Positions 1 through 6,200 of a stretch of 6,200 bases of DNA are shown in pieces. The stretch comes from Porphyrobacter sp. UBA7686 (GTDB lineage: Bacteria; Pseudomonadota; Alphaproteobacteria; Sphingomonadales; Sphingomonadaceae), in NCBI GenBank assembly GCA_002482865.1, contig DLGU01000062.1, forward strand, positions 1 through 6,200. Reading direction: 5' to 3'. Both the position numbers and the translations under genes were made by a program. The notes under the pieces are model-generated. The model ran no database searches, was not told the origin of the DNA, and saw only the letters and a list, made by a program, of their open reading frames with translations. Positions within the stretch are counted from its first letter, which is position 1. The number at the start of each line of letters is the position of its first letter.

Positions 1-1509
1 CGGGCGCAGTCCACGCCTGACCGGTTGGTGCGCCTGACAGTCGATCAGCGCGCGGGCTTGCGCGTCCCCGCTACCTTCGACGTGACGATCGAATATCGCG
101 GCACGATCGGGGCTGGTTGGCGCAGCATGGCCTCGCAAGGCAGCGACGAAATGCGCGAAGACGCGGTGGCCTCCGCCATCACCGAGGTGATCGGTGATGG
201 GCAGGTGGTCGAGCATTCGGTGCGTTACGATGCCGAGGCCGGCCTTGCCGTGCTGACCGGGCGCGGGATCATGAGCAGCGCCTGGACGCGGGACGGCACC
301 GACTACAGGTTCGAGCCGCCCGCCCAGGCCGCGCGCGATGTTGGGTTCGAGGCTGACCGCGCGCGCAGTGCGTGGCGCGCCATCCCGCTCCAGCTCAACG
401 GCCCGGTCTACTTCACCAGCACGGCCGAGGTGCTGCTGCCCGACGATGTCGCGGGCGTGAACCTTGAAGGCAGCGCCGCGCCCGTTTCTGCCACCATTGG
501 CGGGGTCGAACTGGCGTCGACCGCCAAGCTGGACGGGCGCAAGCTGACGATTGATCAGTCGATGCGCACCGTGAAGGAAGAACTCGCCGCCGATGCCATC
601 GGCGCGGCGCGGCGCGAACTCAACCGGTTCGACCGCCAGCTGCCGGTGCTGCGTTCGCAAGGCGAAGTGCGCGAATTGTGGCAGTATTTCGGGAAGGACC
701 GCGCGCGGCTTTCCGCACTTGAGGGGCTCTATGCCAAGGGGATTGCCGGGGCCGAGCCGGATGATCCCTATCCGCTGATCAACCGCGCGGGCTTCCGCAT
801 GGGGATTTTCGATTTTGCCGGCGCGCTGGCGGATGTCGAAGCGGCGATGGCCATCGAGGATTCGCGCGATCTGATCTACGCCCGCGCCACCCTGCGGCGC
901 GAGCTTGGCGATATGTCCGGCGCACTCGCCGATCTGGTCGAGGCCGAAGCGCTGCAACCCGATGGCTCGACCTATGGCGAGCAGATCGAACTGCTCGCAT
1001 TGCTGGGCCGCGCCGAGGAAGGGTTGGTGCTGGCAGAGGACTTCGAAGCTCTGACCAAGGAACGCGCCGACGGCGTCACGGTGATGGCATCCGCGCTCGG
1101 CTGGCAGGGCGCGGCGGACGAAGGCATCGATCTGCTGGACGGCATGATCGCCCAGCGCCCGACTGACGGGAACCTGCTCAACGCGCTGTGCTGGCAGGCG
1201 GCGATCTGGTCGAAGATGGACGAGATGCGGCTGGATTCCTGCACCAAGGCGGTCGAAAAGAGCGACAATGCCCCGACCGCGCTCGATAGCCGGGCGATGG
1301 CGCATTTCCGGCTCGGCAACTTGGCGGCGGCCAAGGCGGATATCGACGCGGCGCTGCTGGCAGAGCCCTATCAGGTCGAATCGCGCCTGCTGCGCGGCAT
1401 CATCCTGCGCGAAATGGGCGACAACTCCGGCAAGGACGAGATCGCACTGGCGCTGAAGATGCGGCCGTCGCTGGCCGCCACCTACAAGGCGTTCGGGCTG
1501 ACCTTCTAA
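1..1509 (+). CDS. DUF3857/transglutaminase-type protein with C-terminal TPR repeats, 5' partial
   Basis: The frame is open from the first base, so the gene starts upstream; the TTG at 25 has no special claim to be a start. About 502 residues are visible. The first ~190 residues are beta-rich, with stretches such as FDVTIEYRGTIG and PVYFTSTAEVLLP that resemble the beta-sandwich part of DUF3857/DUF3858 transglutaminase-like proteins. From about residue 255 to the end there are six or seven degenerate TPR-like helical pairs, for example DFAGALADVEAAMAIED, GDMSGALADLVEAEALQP and LGNLAAAKADIDAALLAEP. TPRs generally mediate protein-protein contacts. In this family the N-terminal part usually carries a signal peptide and a transglutaminase-like domain, but that part lies outside the window, so activity and location cannot be judged. 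It converges on fliA and has no evident flagellar role. The family call is from sequence style and is moderately sure; the TPR part is surer. Confidence 0.75.
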   Translation, partial: RAQSTPDRLVRLTVDQRAGLRVPATFDVTIEYRGTIGAGWRSMASQGSDEMREDAVASAITEVIGDGQVVEHSVRYDAEAGLAVLTGRGIMSSAWTRDGTDYRFEPPAQAARDVGFEADRARSAWRAIPLQLNGPVYFTSTAEVLLPDDVAGVNLEGSAAPVSATIGGVELASTAKLDGRKLTIDQSMRTVKEELAADAIGAARRELNRFDRQLPVLRSQGEVRELWQYFGKDRARLSALEGLYAKGIAGAEPDDPYPLINRAGFRMGIFDFAGALADVEAAMAIEDSRDLIYARATLRRELGDMSGALADLVEAEALQPDGSTYGEQIELLALLGRAEEGLVLAEDFEALTKERADGVTVMASALGWQGAADEGIDLLDGMIAQRPTDGNLLNALCWQAAIWSKMDEMRLDSCTKAVEKSDNAPTALDSRAMAHFRLGNLAAAKADIDAALLAEPYQVESRLLRGIILREMGDNSGKDEIALALKMRPSLAATYKAFGLTF

Positions 1510-1515
1510 GGGTTT

Positions 1516-1579
1516 TTGTTGGCCTACCGCGTCGCTGCTTGAGGGCGTGCTTGTCGGCCTACCGCTTCGCTGCTTGAGG
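1516..1579. repeat. Two-copy direct repeat between convergent genes, possible terminator
   Basis: A 29-base unit occurs at 1516-1544 and again at 1551-1579, a period of 35 bases with two mismatches (bases 1520/1555 and 1531/1566). The shared core includes GGCCTACCGC and TCGCTGCTTGAGG. The second copy with its flank also forms an inverted repeat, GGCCT at 1556-1560 against AGGCC at 1577-1581, so a weak hairpin is possible. It fills the gap between the TPR gene (+) and fliA (-), where a bidirectional terminator would be expected, but there is no clear T-tract after a strong stem. Confidence 0.6.
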
Positions 1580-1581
1580 CC

Positions 1582-2304
1582 TTATGCCGCCTCCAGCAGC
1601 GTGCGCAGGTCGTTCAGCGCCTTGGCCCGCAGCTGGTGGACGCGCGGCACGCTGACCTCCAGCACCGCGGCGATTTCGGTGAGGTTCAATTCCTCGACGA
1701 AGAACAGTTGCAACACCAGCTTCAGCCGGTCGGGCAGCTGGACCATCGCCGTGAGCAGCCGGTCCCGATCCTCGGCGGCGCACAGGGCTTCAAAGGGATC
1801 AGGATCGTCACTGGCGAAGGCGAGGCTGGTTTCGTCGTAGGCGTCGTCGATCGGCGTAAGCTTCACGCCCGAGGCTTCGATCGCGAGCAATTCGGCATCG
1901 CTGACGTCCATCGCGCGGGCAAGCTCCGCGCGGCTCGGCGCGCGGCCCAATGATCCGCGCAGGGCGGAGAGCGCGCGTTCGTAGCCTGAGCGTTTGGCCC
2001 GCGCGGTGCGGCTGTCGAGGGCAACGCGGCGCACTTCATCCAGCATCGCCCCGCGCACCCGGATCTTGGCATAGGCGGCAAACCCGTCCTCGGTCGGCCC
2101 GGCGTGGCGCTGGGCGCATTCGGTGAGCGCGAGGATGCCGGCCTGCACCAGATCCTCGATCTCCAGCCCCTCTCGCCCGCGCCCGTTGATGTGCCATGCG
2201 GTGCGGCGGACCAACGGGAGGAAACGGCGCACGCGGTCGGCCACCTCGGTGCGGGAGGGGGCATAGGGGGCGGGCTGCGCAAAGCTGGTGTGGTCGTGCT
2301 TCAT
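1582..2304 (-). CDS. fliA: Flagellar sigma-28 factor FliA, RNA polymerase sigma factor
   Basis: The 240-residue product has the usual FliA length and directs RNA polymerase to late flagellar promoters. Sigma region 2 spans about residues 20-95, with the core-binding stretch around EIEDLVQAGILAL (49-60) and the promoter-melting/-10 stretch FAAYAKIRVRGAMLDEVR (75-92), which is very FliA-like. Region 3 is about 100-155 (RSGYERALSALRGSLGRAPS onward). Region 4 is about 186-236, with the -35-recognising helix-turn-helix at about 207-228 (LNLTEIAAVLEVSVPRVHQL). No stop or frameshift interrupts it. The ATG start overlaps the flhA stop as ATGA and has a good Shine-Dalgarno, so it is probably co-transcribed and translationally coupled with flhA. 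Because flhA has lost its 5' half, the promoter that served fliA may be lost too. No anti-sigma flgM is visible here. Confidence 0.95.
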   Translation of the reverse strand: MKHDHTSFAQPAPYAPSRTEVADRVRRFLPLVRRTAWHINGRGREGLEIEDLVQAGILALTECAQRHAGPTEDGFAAYAKIRVRGAMLDEVRRVALDSRTARAKRSGYERALSALRGSLGRAPSRAELARAMDVSDAELLAIEASGVKLTPIDDAYDETSLAFASDDPDPFEALCAAEDRDRLLTAMVQLPDRLKLVLQLFFVEELNLTEIAAVLEVSVPRVHQLRAKALNDLRTLLEAA

Positions 2305-3230
2305 GCGGCCGGCTCCTCAGGCGCGGGCGGGGCGAGTTCGGGGGCTTCGTCAGGTGCGCCAATCACGCCGACGACAGCAATCGGCTGGGCGGCGGGCAGT
2401 TCGGCGATGGAGAGGACAAGGCAGCGCGGTGCGCGGGACTTGAGCAAAGCGGCGAGCGCGCGGCGGGCGGGGGGCTGGACGATCAGCGCAACGGGGCTGC
2501 CCTCGCGGTCGGCGATGCGGCTTGCGTCGCGTACGATCATGCTGCCGCAATCGGGCTCGATCAGCGGCTGGCCGGTGGCTGGGTCGATCATCCCGCCGAG
2601 GATCGCGCTTTCGAGGCCCGCGTCGAGGGTGATGACCTTCAAGGGCTCACCCGGCGCGGCGATGCGGGCGACGAGCCGCGCGGCCATTTCGGCGCGCACG
2701 GCATCGATCACGGCGTCGAAATCGCCCGTCTTCTGCAAGGCCAGCGCGAGACTGGTGAACAACGGCTGCGGGTGGGCCAGCCCGATCCCATCGGCCATCA
2801 GCGCCCGCAGCGTGCGGGTCAGCGCGGCGAGCGGCAGGGGATCCGGCGTCACCGCCTCGACCAGCGCCGGTGCGCGGGCCTTGAGCCCATCGACCCACTC
2901 GCGCACCTCGTCCGGGCCGAGCAGCTGGTGCGCTTCGGCCAGCAAGGCCTGATTGGCATGGGTGGCGATGACCGAGGCGGGATCGACCACGAGGAAGCCC
3001 TCCGCCACGGCATGATCGCGCGCGGTCGGCGCGATCCACAAGGCGGGGCAATCGAAGCTGGGATCGCGGGTCGGCTCGCCCGCCAGGCCCCCGTATCCAT
3101 TGGGTCCCGGTCGCACATCGCCGGCGTCGATGGCGAGCAGCTTGCCGGGCCGCACGCTGCCTCGCGCAATGCTCACCCCGCCCATCAGCACGGCGTAATC
3201 CTGTGCAGCAAGATCAAGCACGACAGACGG
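2301..3230 (-). pseudogene. flhA: flhA C-terminal cytoplasmic fragment; 5' half with all membrane helices missing
   Basis: FlhA is normally about 690-700 residues: an N-terminal membrane half that forms the export-gate channel, a linker, and a cytoplasmic domain that docks chaperone-substrate complexes. Here only about 310 residues match, beginning near AAQDYAVLMGGVSIARG, which aligns with the first strand of the cytoplasmic domain (about residue 385 of Salmonella FlhA). Family hallmarks follow in order: RPGKLLAIDAGD, GEPTRDPSFDCPALWI, GFLVVDPASVIATHANQ, the helical stretch through PALVEAVTPDPLPLAALTRTL, and near the end RCLVLSIAELPAAQPIAVVGVIGA. There are no internal stops. No credible start exists at the cut: the in-frame GTG at 3221 and ATG at 3185 lack a Shine-Dalgarno. 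Upstream the frame runs antisense to flhB, without homology. The stop overlaps the fliA ATG. It may instead be expressed as a soluble fragment, but a deletion or inversion product is likelier. The exact 5' edge is uncertain within about 20 bases. Confidence 0.85.
2313..2318 (-). promoter_or_regulatory. Shine-Dalgarno of fliA, inside the flhA 3' end
   Basis: On the minus strand GAGGAG lies 8 bases before the fliA ATG, within the last codons of flhA. It supports the start at 2304 and suggests coupled translation of fliA after flhA. Confidence 0.7.
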
Positions 3231-3236
3231 CTGAAA
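3209..3236. other. Head-to-head breakpoint joining flhA and flhB fragments
   Basis: On the minus strand FlhA similarity is convincing up to about base 3209 and fades by about 3230. On the plus strand FlhB similarity begins at about 3222 (DRRLKMSLQDM). The two gene remnants therefore touch or overlap by a few bases, leaving no promoter, no ribosome binding site and no 5' coding region for either. No insertion sequence, target duplication or obvious attachment site is visible at the join. Confidence 0.75.
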
Positions 3237-3707
3237 ATGAGTCTTCAGGACATGCGCGAGGAGAACAAGCAGGCCGAAGGCTCGCCCGAGATGAAGGGCG
3301 CCCGCCGTCAGCGCCAGCGCGATCTGGCGCGGGGCGGTGTGGCACGCGCGATGAAGGAGGCGCAGTTCATCGTCGTCAATCCGCTGCACTTCGCGGTGGC
3401 GCTGACCTATGATCCCGCCCGCGCGCCCGCGCCGCTGCTGCTGGCGAAAGGCCGGGGCGAAACCGCGCTCGCCATGCGCGAGATTGCGGCGGAGGAGGGG
3501 CTGCCGGTGCTCGAATACCCGCAGCTGGCCCGCGCGGTCTATTTCACCACGAGGCCGAACCAGATGGTGCGTGAGGAATTGTACATCGCGCTCGCATCGC
3601 TGGTGGCCTTCGTGATGGCGCTGAAACGCGGCCAGCGCCCGCGCCGTCCGGTGGTGGAGGTGCCAACGGGGTTGCGCTTCGATGGTGATGGGAAGGCGGA
3701 GGGGTGA
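3222..3707 (+). pseudogene. flhB: flhB C-terminal cytoplasmic fragment (export switch domain); membrane part missing
   Basis: FlhB is normally about 350-385 residues: four membrane helices, then a cytoplasmic domain that self-cleaves between Asn and Pro of NPTH to switch export from hook to filament proteins. Only the cytoplasmic part is here. It starts at DRRLKMSLQDMREENKQ, matching the RKLRMSKQDIRDE region just after the last helix in Salmonella FlhB, and continues with EGSPEMKGARRQRQRD, the cleavage loop IVVNPLHFAVALTYD, LLLAKGRGETALAMREIAAE, PVLEYPQLARAVYF and ELYIALASLVAFVMALKR. Counted from the ATG at 3237 it has 156 residues, with the cleavage Asn at 48 (bases 3378-3380); Met-to-Asn spacing equals that in Salmonella. 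The motif reads NPLH: Asn, Pro and His are kept and Thr is Leu. The ATG lacks a Shine-Dalgarno, so it is an internal Met and probably not a true start. Stand-alone FlhB C-domain paralogues (FlhX) exist, but those are shorter. A repeat and fliD follow on the same strand. Confidence 0.85.
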
Positions 3708-3720
3708 TTGTCCCATGTCT

Positions 3721-3812
3721 CCCCGTCCCGGGCTTGACCCGGGACCCCGCTTTTCCGGTCCGATCGCACCGCTTCAAGGGCATCGGGCCCCCGGGTCAAG
3801 CCCGGGGCGGGG
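3721..3812. repeat. Long inverted repeat (23-bp arms) between flhB remnant and fliD
   Basis: The left arm, 3721-3743, and the right arm, 3790-3812, are reverse complements with one mismatch and are separated by 46 bases. Each arm carries the near-palindromic core CCCGGGCTTGACCCGGG (3727-3743, and its complement at 3790-3806), so each arm can also fold alone. This type of element is, to my knowledge, dispersed between genes in many sphingomonads and relatives. Here it could act as a terminator or attenuator after flhB, or as a transcript-stabilising fold, and it separates flhB from fliD. No transposase is linked to it. Confidence 0.8.
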
Positions 3813-3861: not shown

Positions 3862-5295
3862 ATGACCACGACCTCCGGCTCATCAATCATCTCGGCACTT
3901 GGCGCTGGCAGCGGCGTCGATTTCATGAAGCTGGCTTCGGACATTTCCGCCGCCAGCTTTGCCGCGCAGCGCAATTCGCTTACCGCGCGCCAGACCGCGC
4001 TGGAGGCGCAGATTTCGGCTGTCGGGCAGTTGCGCGGCGCGATCACCGGGCTGGCGAGTGCGCTGGGCGACCGGATCCGCTCCGGCGACCTTGCGCCCCG
4101 GCCCGAACTCGCCAACCCCGCCGTCGCCAAGGTGACCGTGCCCGCTGGCCTCAGCCCGCGCGGCAATTTCGCGCTGGAAGTCACTCAGCTTGCCCAAGGC
4201 CAGACGTTGGTGGGCCGTGCCTATGCCAACCGGGATGCGCTGGTGGGCGAAGGCACGCTGACGCTGCGGTTCGGCACGGTGGCAGGCGGCAGCTTCAGCG
4301 CTGATGGCGCGCGGCCCGCGATCGATATTGCTGTCACCGCCACCGACACGCTGGCGAGCCTTGCGACCAAAATCAATCAGGCAAGCGGCGGGGCAGTGCA
4401 GGCCTATGTCGCCAATGGGGCGGCCGGCGCGCAGCTGGTGATGAAGGGGCGCGAAGGCGCGGCCAATGGCTTCGTGCTCGAAGCGGCAGGCGCGGGCGCG
4501 GGCGATGCTCCGGGCGATCTGGGCTATCTTGGCTGGAGCCCGGCGACCAACACCACGCAATTGCAAGGCACCGCGCGCGATGCCGCCTTCACGCTCGATT
4601 CCGTGGCGATGACCAGCCCGACCAACCGCGTCACCGGCCTGCCCGGCGGGTTCGTCCTCAACCTCACCGCGACCAACACCGGCGCGCCGACCAACCTCAG
4701 CTTCGCCAGCAACACCGATGCGATTACCAGCGTGATGAGTGATTTCGTCGCCGCGCTGAACGATATTGTCAGTCAGCTTGCCGATGTCGCCGCGCCAATC
4801 GGGGGCGAGTTGGGCAATGATTCTGGCGCGCGGGAACTGCGCCGCGATCTCGCTGGGTTGGCGAGCCGGATCATCATGCCCGGCGCTGCCGATGGCGAAC
4901 CGCGCACCCTCGCCGATCTCGGCCTGGCGCTGAACCGCGATGGCAGCTTCCGGCTGGACAGCGCGCGCCTCACCCGCTCGCTTGAGACCAGCCCCGATGC
5001 CGTCGCGGCGATGTTCACCACCGGGGTTTCGGGCGTGTTTGCAACGATGGACCGCTTCGCGCGGGAGACCAGCCTTGTCAGCGATCCCGGATCGCTGGGC
5101 GGATCGCTCAAGCGGTTCGAGACGCAGCAGGCCGCCAGTGACGAGCGGCTGGCGAAAATCGCCGAGCAGCAGGAGGATCTGCGTGAACGGCTGACCCGCG
5201 AATTCACCGCGTCCGAACGCCGGGTGGCGGCTTCGCAATCGACCCTGTCGTTCCTGCGCCAGCAGGTCGATATCTGGTCGAACAGCGAACGGTAA
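3862..5295 (+). CDS. fliD: Flagellar filament cap protein FliD (HAP2)
   Basis: FliD is secreted through the flagellar export apparatus and forms the cap at the filament tip, where it helps flagellin fold into place. The 477-residue product is of normal length. The N-terminal FliD_N region is about residues 15-112, opening with the family signature GAGSGVDFMKLASDI and a helical stretch (AAQRNSLTARQTALEAQISAV). The middle holds beta-rich segments, including AAFTLDSVAMTSPTNRVTG (about 239-257). FliD_C covers roughly 275-470 and ends in a helical, coiled-coil-like tail (about 412-470, through LKRFETQQAASDERLAKI and SFLRQQVDIW). I see no cysteine, as is common for exported flagellar subunits. The start is fixed by the N-terminal signature, but no Shine-Dalgarno is evident before it. 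fliS follows after 10 bases, so the two form an operon, as in many bacteria. A FliA-dependent promoter would be expected, but I could not identify a convincing one. Confidence 0.95.
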   Translation: MTTTSGSSIISALGAGSGVDFMKLASDISAASFAAQRNSLTARQTALEAQISAVGQLRGAITGLASALGDRIRSGDLAPRPELANPAVAKVTVPAGLSPRGNFALEVTQLAQGQTLVGRAYANRDALVGEGTLTLRFGTVAGGSFSADGARPAIDIAVTATDTLASLATKINQASGGAVQAYVANGAAGAQLVMKGREGAANGFVLEAAGAGAGDAPGDLGYLGWSPATNTTQLQGTARDAAFTLDSVAMTSPTNRVTGLPGGFVLNLTATNTGAPTNLSFASNTDAITSVMSDFVAALNDIVSQLADVAAPIGGELGNDSGARELRRDLAGLASRIIMPGAADGEPRTLADLGLALNRDGSFRLDSARLTRSLETSPDAVAAMFTTGVSGVFATMDRFARETSLVSDPGSLGGSLKRFETQQAASDERLAKIAEQQEDLRERLTREFTASERRVAASQSTLSFLRQQVDIWSNSER

Positions 5296-5305: not shown

Positions 5306-5707
5306 ATGATGCAGATGTTCAGCCAGAACCCCGCCGCCGCCTATCGCCGGGTTGCGCTGGAAGCCCGGATCGAGGCGTCGGACAGCGCCGATCTCACGCG
5401 CATCTGTCTGGAAGAGGCTTATGCTGCGCTTGGGCAGGCGTTGCGCGCGGTCGAGCAGCCGTTGCCAGCTTGTAGCGAGGTTATACCGAGCTATTCGCGG
5501 GGTTATCGCGATGCGCTGAGCCGGGCGCAGACGATCCTGTTGTGGCTCGCTCAATCGGTTGCACCGGGCCATCCGCTGGGGGCGAGCCTCACGGCGTTCT
5601 ACGGCGGGCTGGCGAGCCAGATCGGGGCCAATTGCCTACAGGCGAATGCGCAGAGAATCGCAGAAATCCAGAGCGATATCAGAGATATACTTGAAGCAGC
5701 AGGCTAG
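5306..5707 (+). CDS. fliS: Flagellar export chaperone FliS (flagellin chaperone)
   Basis: FliS is a small helical cytoplasmic protein that binds the C-terminus of flagellin, prevents early polymerisation and delivers it to the FlhA cytoplasmic domain. The 133-residue product (132 if the ATG at 5309 is used) has the usual length. Family features are the N-terminal AAAYRRVALEARIEASDSADL, then an amphipathic helical run LTRICLEEAYAALGQALRAV, the stretch SRAQTILLWLAQSV, and the C-terminal helices ASLTAFYGGLASQIGANCLQAN and RIAEIQSDIRDILEA. It is a divergent FliS, recognised by helix pattern and by its place 10 bases after fliD. It shares the fliD transcript and ends before a palindrome likely to stop transcription. 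No flagellin gene is present in the window. A different helical flagellar chaperone is less likely given the YRRV...S..L pattern. Confidence 0.88.
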   Translation: MMQMFSQNPAAAYRRVALEARIEASDSADLTRICLEEAYAALGQALRAVEQPLPACSEVIPSYSRGYRDALSRAQTILLWLAQSVAPGHPLGASLTAFYGGLASQIGANCLQANAQRIAEIQSDIRDILEAAG

Positions 5708-5774: not shown

Positions 5775-6200
5775 TCAGTCGATCCATTCCGCGATGATCC
5801 GCGCCGCATCCGCCGGGTCCTGAAACGGGTGGAAATGGGTCATGTCGGGCCGGTAGAGGTCGGTTCCCTGCGGTAGGACATTCGCCAGTTCAGGCCAGGT
5901 CGGCGAGCTCTTGAAATCGTTGAGATTGGTCATCTGCGCGCGCACCACCAGCACCGGGATGTCGACTGTCCGGGCGGTCTCGACAATCGCGCCATTGCTG
6001 CGGCTCGACGCATAGACGCTGGCTTCGACTTCCGGCGCGCAGGCCAGTTCCAGACCCTCTCCCGAGGCGGCTTGGGTCAGGCCGTAGCGGCAGTAATCAG
6101 CGAAGACGCGGGGGTCGAACAGGTTGTACGGATCGCGGGTCTGGAAGCGTTCGATCATCGCTTCGGCGCTGGCGAAGTCGCGCTTGCGGCGGATCGCGGG
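5775..6200 (-). CDS. Alpha/beta-fold hydrolase, C-terminal part (5' partial at right edge)
   Basis: The frame stays open to the window end, so the gene starts beyond 6200; the ATG at 6158 is internal. The 141 visible residues begin ...RRKRDFASAEAMIERFQ and include the cap-domain-like stretch YNLFDPRVFADYCRYGL, then LELACAPEVEASVYASS. A returning core strand DIPVLVVRAQMT follows, typical of the strand before the acid residue in alpha/beta hydrolases, and then MTHFHPFQDP, whose His (THFH) is the likely catalytic histidine. The C-terminus ADAARIIAEWID is the usual last helix. The nucleophile Ser lies outside the window, so substrate and activity are unknown. It converges on fliS and shows no flagellar connection. 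Confidence 0.85.
   Translation of the reverse strand, partial: PAIRRKRDFASAEAMIERFQTRDPYNLFDPRVFADYCRYGLTQAASGEGLELACAPEVEASVYASSRSNGAIVETARTVDIPVLVVRAQMTNLNDFKSSPTWPELANVLPQGTDLYRPDMTHFHPFQDPADAARIIAEWID

What the first reader, a model, noticed from the sequence alone, without database searches (positions are those of the whole stretch)
2301..3707. flhA and flhB truncated at one shared point and fused head to head
Seen: FlhA C-domain on the - strand and FlhB C-domain on the + strand meet at about 3209-3236 with no spacer. About 385 residues of FlhA and 216 of FlhB are missing, that is, all membrane helices of both. Known: these membrane parts are needed for flagellar export. Inferred origins: (a) a deletion of about 1.8 kb or more across a divergent flhA/flhB pair; (b) an inversion with one breakpoint in each gene, in which case the two N-terminal halves lie head-on elsewhere; (c) a chimeric contig. 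Because the remnants and fliA, fliD and fliS are undamaged, the event looks recent or artefactual.
Basis: partly seen in the sequence, partly recalled or inferred. Interest (0 to 1): 0.75.

Follow-up and report, generated by a model that had tools for sequence, protein, structure and literature searches.

The report
One flagellum deletion, scattered across genus
This Erythrobacter contig carries a deletion of about 30 kilobases that removes nearly the whole flagellar gene cluster, and the same break, to the base, is found in six other species scattered through the genus, likely because one old deletion passes between lineages by recombination.

Summary
The window holds the C-terminal parts of flhA (-) and flhB (+), meeting head to head at 3214-3219. 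It is neither an artefact, nor a 1.8-kb loss, nor an inversion. In full-length relatives the two break points lie 30-41 kb apart (40 of 43 genomes), with the flagellar cluster between; here that stretch is gone. The identical junction is spanned in 7 of 114 genomes of the genus, the window's included, and at protein level in 15 FlhA-C clusters, one of them from those genomes. FlhA N-half, flagellin and FliP were not found in any of the 7, of which two are only about 70% complete. The seven are not one clade: rpoB, flhA-C and flhB-C each reject it. Three other losses in the genus have different ends. Surviving genes evolve like those of full-length strains, even fliD, which needs a flagellum; reuse of the remnants is unlikely. 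I favour one old deletion allele carried by homologous recombination through intact flanks (inferred). Recurrent in-place excision is the main rival: no shared donor tract was found beside the junction.

The parts
1..1509 (+). C-terminal part of a TPR-like protein, left flank; its homologue lies next to fliA in full-length G003 and G091 too
   Evidence: Pfam TPR hits below cut-off
1582..2304 (-). fliA, flagellar sigma factor, intact
   Evidence: Sigma70_r2 and r4; no stops in 7 of 7 junction genomes
2301..3218 (-). flhA remnant: cytoplasmic C-terminal part only
   Evidence: PF00771 382-654/657; no N-terminal half found in the assembly
3214..3219 (.). deletion junction; short motif TCnAGC shared by flhA (reverse strand) and flhB of full-length relatives
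   Evidence: spacing from a conserved flhA motif to the flhB ATG equal in 7 of 7
3220..3707 (+). flhB remnant: C-terminal part with NPLH site; first internal ATG at 3237
   Evidence: PF01312 210-335/335 from the ATG; no Shine-Dalgarno-like motif before the ATG in 7 of 7
3862..5295 (+). fliD, flagellar cap protein, intact
   Evidence: FliD_N, FliD_C; no stops in 6 of 6 junction genomes whose fetched contig holds it
5306..5707 (+). fliS-like flagellin chaperone
   Evidence: PF02561 E 0.00066, below the curated cut-off; order fliD-fliS as in relatives
5775..6200 (-). partial hydrolase-like gene, right flank; the label is my reading, Pfam gives no hit
   Evidence: same neighbour in junction and full-length genomes

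Best explanation
The locus carries a deletion of the flagellar cluster from within flhA to within flhB, and this identical junction, found in seven species that are not one clade, is likely a single old deletion allele that travels between lineages by homologous recombination through its intact flanks. Shown: the deletion relative to full-length relatives, its identical ends, no FlhA N-half, FliP or flagellin found in the seven genomes, the non-monophyly, and the intact flanking genes. Inferred: a short DNA piece with flhA-C and flhB-C as arms (by transformation, transduction or a gene transfer agent) loops out the resident cluster of about 30 kb in one step, while the reverse, import of the whole cluster, is rare. 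The junction then persists beside the full-length state inside species, and recombination with full-length neighbours keeps renewing its flanks. The bearers should lack flagella; the two C-terminal remnants are predicted to be passengers, not a working module.
For: Same base at the junction in 7 of 114 genus genomes among the matches listed, and the same spacing at protein level in 15 FlhA-C clusters, one of which is G066. One clade rejected on rpoB (p-AU 9e-71 for five junction genomes), flhA-C DNA (8e-5, seven) and flhB-C DNA (7e-4, seven). In a 114-row FlhA-C tree 15 changes of state at the fewest, 8 forced by starred branches (quick tree). Three other losses in the genus have different ends, so chance deletion does not favour these ends. 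Recombination between homologous arms gives the same junction whatever the local sequence. Transformation deletes islands far more readily than it inserts them (PMC5850275, abstract and Discussion read). Flanking genes are intact and local.
Against: No excess likeness between junction genomes beside the junction on either side: random sets reach the observed value in 87-96% of draws for flhA and 29-82% for flhB, so no donor tract is seen. G074 matches its full-length sister G048 at 99% in the first 100 bases of the flhA side. The window shares its last flhA-side codon with G056, which keeps full flhA, though four other full-length strains have that codon too. All this also fits in-place deletion. 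Both states inside one species could not be looked for. DNA uptake genes and gene transfer agents were not looked for in these genomes.
Confidence: 0.5

Rival explanations
1. The same deletion arises again and again in place, by a site-specific or hot-spot recombination between one site in flhA and one in flhB, as an irreversible switch to a flagellum-less state.
For: Identical breakpoints with five changes of state on the rpoB trees (several forks there are weakly supported); flanks local up to the junction; no shared tract; surviving genes intact, so each event looks young; synonymous sites at the flhB end are fairly conserved (93rd percentile).
Against: The two ends share only a TCnAGC(G) motif; synonymous conservation at the flhA end is ordinary (57th percentile). 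No recombinase among 10 of the 37 ORFs between flhA and flhB in G003; the other 27 were not scanned.
Confidence: 0.27
2. The junction is ancient and the two C-terminal domains, with FliA, FliD and FliS, were kept for a new job as a soluble module.
For: Remnants have no stops and dN/dS like intact genes, 0.054 for flhA-C and 0.095 for flhB-C between the window and G076. Stand-alone FlhB C-domain proteins (FlhX) are known (recalled).
Against: fliD is just as well kept, though without export it should be useless. The flhB remnant has no Shine-Dalgarno-like site before its ATG in 7 of 7, and the flhA remnant has no ATG at one position in all seven. Flank trees reject one origin of the flanks.
Confidence: 0.1
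3. The junction is the ancestral state of the genus and full-length strains regained the cluster by import.
For: Homologous arms would make regain precise too.
Against: Six full-length-flhA genomes looked at show no clear shift of nearest relative across the junction point in flhA, though the power is low; import of about 30 kb should be rare by the published asymmetry; full-length FlhA occurs in all 16 genomes of other families sampled.
Confidence: 0.07
4. Assembly artefact or an ordinary one-off deletion in this strain.
For: The contig is short, from a fragmented genome.
Against: Same junction in six other assemblies, three on contigs of 0.98-3.76 Mb, and in further protein clusters.
Confidence: 0.01

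Closest known systems
Transformation asymmetry / deletion of genomic islands by transformation (PMC5850275; abstract and Discussion read)
   Same: A short fragment with two flanking arms can remove a large island; removal is easier than insertion; the junction is exact.
   Different: Shown there in pneumococcus for islands up to 10-20 kb. Here the lost block is the flagellar cluster, its arms lie inside flhA and flhB, and transfer is inferred only.
Replacement flexible genomic islands exchanged by homologous recombination in aquatic prokaryotes (PMC4033161; abstract and found passages read)
   Same: Surface-structure clusters, flagellum glycosylation included, exchanged through conserved flanks in aquatic bacteria.
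   Different: There one version replaces another and peaks of synonymous changes mark the borders; here it is presence against absence, and no border signal was found.
Patchy flagella in Erythrobacteraceae (PMC7660246; section 15 and found passages read)
   Same: Flagellar genes and flagella reported for only some type strains of the genus.
   Different: The parts I read do not describe how the cluster was lost or a shared junction.
FlhX, stand-alone FlhB C-domain proteins (recalled; listing only)
   Same: A free C-terminal FlhB domain of similar size.
   Different: FlhX sits in genomes with a complete FlhB (recalled); here no full FlhB or FlhA was found.

Membership tests
Deletion allele spread by homologous recombination | Identical junction in different lineages | tested here: met
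   7 of 114 genomes, same base; 15 protein clusters
Deletion allele spread by homologous recombination | Allele distribution discordant with the species tree | tested here: met
   rpoB rejects one clade of the five junction genomes that could be placed, p-AU 9e-71
Deletion allele spread by homologous recombination | Donor-like tract beside the junction | tested here: not met
   No junction-to-junction excess on either side
Deletion allele spread by homologous recombination | Both states inside one species | not testable with these tools
   One genome per species is held
Site-specific excision | Conserved recognition sequence at both ends | tested here: not met
   flhA end ordinary, flhB end raised (57th and 93rd percentile)
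Site-specific excision | Recombinase linked to the locus | tested here: inconclusive
   10 of 37 ORFs between flhA and flhB of G003 scanned, none a recombinase
Decaying pseudogene pair | Stops, frameshifts or relaxed dN/dS | tested here: not met
   No stops; dN/dS as in full-length pairs
FlhX-type protein | Own start and ribosome site, in a genome with full FlhB (recalled definition) | tested here: not met
   No Shine-Dalgarno-like motif in 7 of 7; no full FlhB in the window's genome or G020, other five not searched for it
Inversion with two breakpoints | FlhA N-terminal half elsewhere in the genome | tested here: not met
   Not found in 7 of 7 junction genomes, two of them about 70% complete

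The most novel reading that the evidence does not exclude
Erythrobacter keeps an ancient genus-wide dimorphism, flagellum cluster or none, in which a single deletion junction older than the species is carried across speciation and between lineages by recombination of its flanks: a trans-species polymorphism for a whole organelle in bacteria, or contagious loss of motility.
Probability: 0.42. Interest if true: 0.87.

Novelty: new variant of a known kind. Interest (0 to 1): 0.7.

Why it matters
Loss of flagella is usually read as many separate accidents. Here one exact junction marks loss in scattered members of a genus, while three other losses there have different ends. If the allele spreads by recombination, gene loss itself is transmissible, and parallel losses on a tree would not be independent events. 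It would also make the asymmetry between deleting and inserting large clusters testable in nature. If instead the event recurs in place, there is an unknown precise excision of about 30 kb. A PCR across 3100-3350 in many isolates of one species would separate the two.

Tried and rejected
Artefact, inversion and a 1.8-kb deletion were tested and rejected. Co-option of the remnants was weighed and mostly rejected, because fliD is equally well kept and starts are not conserved. A junction-to-junction tract was sought and not found. A longer direct repeat between the two ends was looked for by eye in the alignments; I saw only TCnAGC(G). A shift of relatives inside flhA was sought in six genomes and not seen. 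In the family sample the other six junction genomes are not among the rows shown, so that call speaks on other genera only. Literature: in the listings (titles and abstract starts) of searches I saw no paper on this junction; three papers were opened.

Limits and rows dropped: the match lists are cut at the weak end, and the protein searches are capped (one search scored 7998 candidates and listed 120 of 128 hits), so counts are lower bounds. Of 51 FlhA-C proteins classed, 15 run through the junction, 10 are of full-length type and 26 start too late to tell; P0175 looks like a junction type by eye but was not counted. Of 115 FlhB-C hits 3 show the junction motif, 16 the full-length motif, 24 start at the ATG, 72 other. 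rpoB trees use 50 of the 60 genomes searched: G000 has no rpoB; G066, G013, G007, G017, G089, G106, G064, G093 and G094 are partial. G005 was left out of the DNA flank trees and the proximity test; G105 has no sequence at the junction; G056 has no flhB-C. The fliS comparison has one full-length pair only, and fliD covers at most 340 codons. G020 and G066 are sisters in one FlhA-C tree but not in the larger one.

Faults of my own: the first rpoB tree mixed strands and is void, replaced. The first collection pattern had a miscounted spacer (found), replaced. I first took an ORF of G003 for fliF; Pfam shows a sigma-54 activator. The 43 genomes were entered by hand (both hits on one contig); at least one further such genome, G110, was not entered.

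Full report
What is there. The window is the whole of contig C129 (6200 bases) of a fragmented genome, 2.6 Mb in 221 contigs and 71% complete. From left to right: the end of a TPR-like protein, fliA (-), the C-terminal part of flhA (-), the C-terminal part of flhB (+), fliD (+), a fliS-like gene (+), and part of a further gene (-). FlhA covers profile positions 382-654 of 657 and FlhB 210-335 of 335 from its first ATG. The two meet at 3214-3219. No other FlhA or FlhB match was found in the assembly.

What was lost. In relatives with full-length genes (G003, G091) the flanks are the same on both sides, but between flhA and flhB lies the flagellar cluster. Ten of its 37 ORFs in G003 were scanned: flagellin, FliG, FliI, a FliM/N protein, FliP, FliR, FlgI, FlgK, MotA and a sigma-54 activator. 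The distance between the two break points is 30-41 kb in 40 of 43 full-length genomes entered, with three outliers; in G003 it is 31.9 kb. So the junction is a deletion of the whole stretch.

The junction is shared. A DNA search of 114 genomes of the genus found the junction spanned in seven: the window, G076, G074, G059, G066, G020 and G127. Alignment puts it at the same base in all seven, and the spacing from a conserved flhA motif to the flhB ATG is equal in all seven. A scan of one genome per species with a junction pattern gave five named records: a MAG labelled Erythrobacter sanguineus, an Erythrobacteraceae MAG, two 'uncultured Erythrobacter sp.' isolates, and Porphyrobacter sp. SLTP. 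Their contig lengths equal those of G059, G066, G020, G127 and G076. Among the matches listed for 397 genomes of the family only the window spans the junction.

More bearers. A protein search gave 15 FlhA-C clusters whose frame runs through the junction into antisense flhB with the same spacing; one (P0174) is G066. Ten others are of full-length type and 26 start too late to tell. Three of 115 FlhB-C hits show the matching IER[DN]KRLKM motif in place of FQR; 16 show the full-length motif.

The bearers lack the rest. FlhA N-half: not found in 7 of 7. Flagellin: 0 of 7, against 4 of 4 full-length genomes tested. FliP: 0 of 7, against 3 of 3. Five of the seven are 99-100% complete; the window's genome and G066 are about 70%, so absence there is weaker.

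Not one clade. rpoB trees need five changes of state, though several forks are weak. G074 is sister to full-length G048 (91/100), and G076 is sister to G056 (100/100), which keeps full flhA. One clade is rejected on rpoB (p-AU 9e-71 for the five bearers with full rpoB, 3e-6 for three of the near group), on flhA-C DNA (8e-5 for seven, 6e-87 for four) and on flhB-C DNA (7e-4 for seven, 0.02 for four). With the metagenome proteins the FlhA-C tree needs 15 changes, 8 of them forced by starred branches; that is a quick tree with one kind of support.

Other losses differ. G056 keeps flhA and the ORFs as far as a rod-protein-like gene and then resumes inside fliD; G022 keeps flagellin, part of the sigma-54 activator and a shorter flhB piece; G105 has a shorter flhA piece and transposase-like genes (my reading) beside it. 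So the identical ends are not where deletions fall by chance.

The survivors are intact. dN/dS of flhA-C is 0.054 (window-G076) and 0.179 (G066-G020), against 0.058-0.181 in full-length pairs; for flhB-C 0.095 and 0.082, against 0.049-0.182. fliD, which should be useless without a flagellum, shows the same: 0.119 (G074-G048), 0.364 (G059-G055) and 0.244 (G066-G020), against 0.092-0.443. No stops in flhA-C (7 of 7), fliA (7 of 7), fliD (6 of 6) or fliS (6 of 6; partial in G066). Before the flhB ATG there is no Shine-Dalgarno-like motif in 7 of 7, and no ATG of the flhA remnant sits at one position in all seven. Hence the low dN/dS is best read as a young or often recombining state in each lineage, not as a new function (inference).

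How it most likely works. Identical ends plus scattered distribution leave two serious models. In the first, one old deletion allele moves by homologous recombination: two arms, flhA-C with fliA on one side and flhB-C with fliD on the other, loop out the resident cluster. Published work finds that fragments of 2 kb could drive deletions independent of island length, while insertion falls with size (PMC5850275). In the second, a precise excision recurs in place. Against the first: no shared tract next to the junction, and flanks that match local relatives to the last codons. Against the second: the ends share only TCnAGC(G), and the flhA end shows no raised synonymous conservation (57th percentile; flhB end 93rd). 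I give 0.5 to the first and 0.27 to the second. Long coexistence of both states inside species, with free exchange of flanks, would explain the missing tract, but could not be tested.

Relation to known work. Flagellar genes are reported for some type strains of the genus only (PMC7660246, section 15). Exchange of surface islands through flanks is known in aquatic bacteria (PMC4033161, abstract and passages). In the listings of searches I saw no paper on a shared flhA/flhB deletion junction; most of those papers were not opened.

Noticed in passing
G162 and G244, matches: In these two genomes of other genera flhB and flhA lie only about 3.6 kb apart, as if the order were flhB-fliD-fliS-fliA-flhA; the Erythrobacter cluster would then be a circular permutation. 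Order inferred from distances and strands only.
   Followed up: partly
window 3721-3812: Inverted repeat with 29-nt arms, 90% complementary, between the flhB remnant and fliD; looks like a dispersed palindromic unit.
   Followed up: no
window 1516-1579: Two copies of a 29-nt direct repeat, starts 35 nt apart, downstream of the TPR gene.
   Followed up: no
G056 (L112), G022 (L113), G105 (L114): Three other partial losses of the flagellar cluster with different ends; in G105 transposase-like genes (my reading) sit at the break.
   Followed up: partly
G059 (L109, L190): The junction MAG is labelled Erythrobacter sanguineus, while the type strain of that species is reported to have flagellar genes and flagella (PMC7660246). 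Whether the two are one species was not tested.
   Followed up: no
G004:C2:1750077-1754463: A second flhB and a second flhA, the latter matching in two pieces (1-384 and 460-655), beside the standard set.
   Followed up: no
11 of the 16 genomes of other families: A short extra FlhB C-domain match (about 260-335 of the profile) roughly 2.5-3 kb from full flhB on the other strand, FlhX-like by size.
   Followed up: no
P0228: A metagenome protein with both a FlhA and a secretin domain in its precomputed Pfam list; possibly chimeric, not checked.
   Followed up: no
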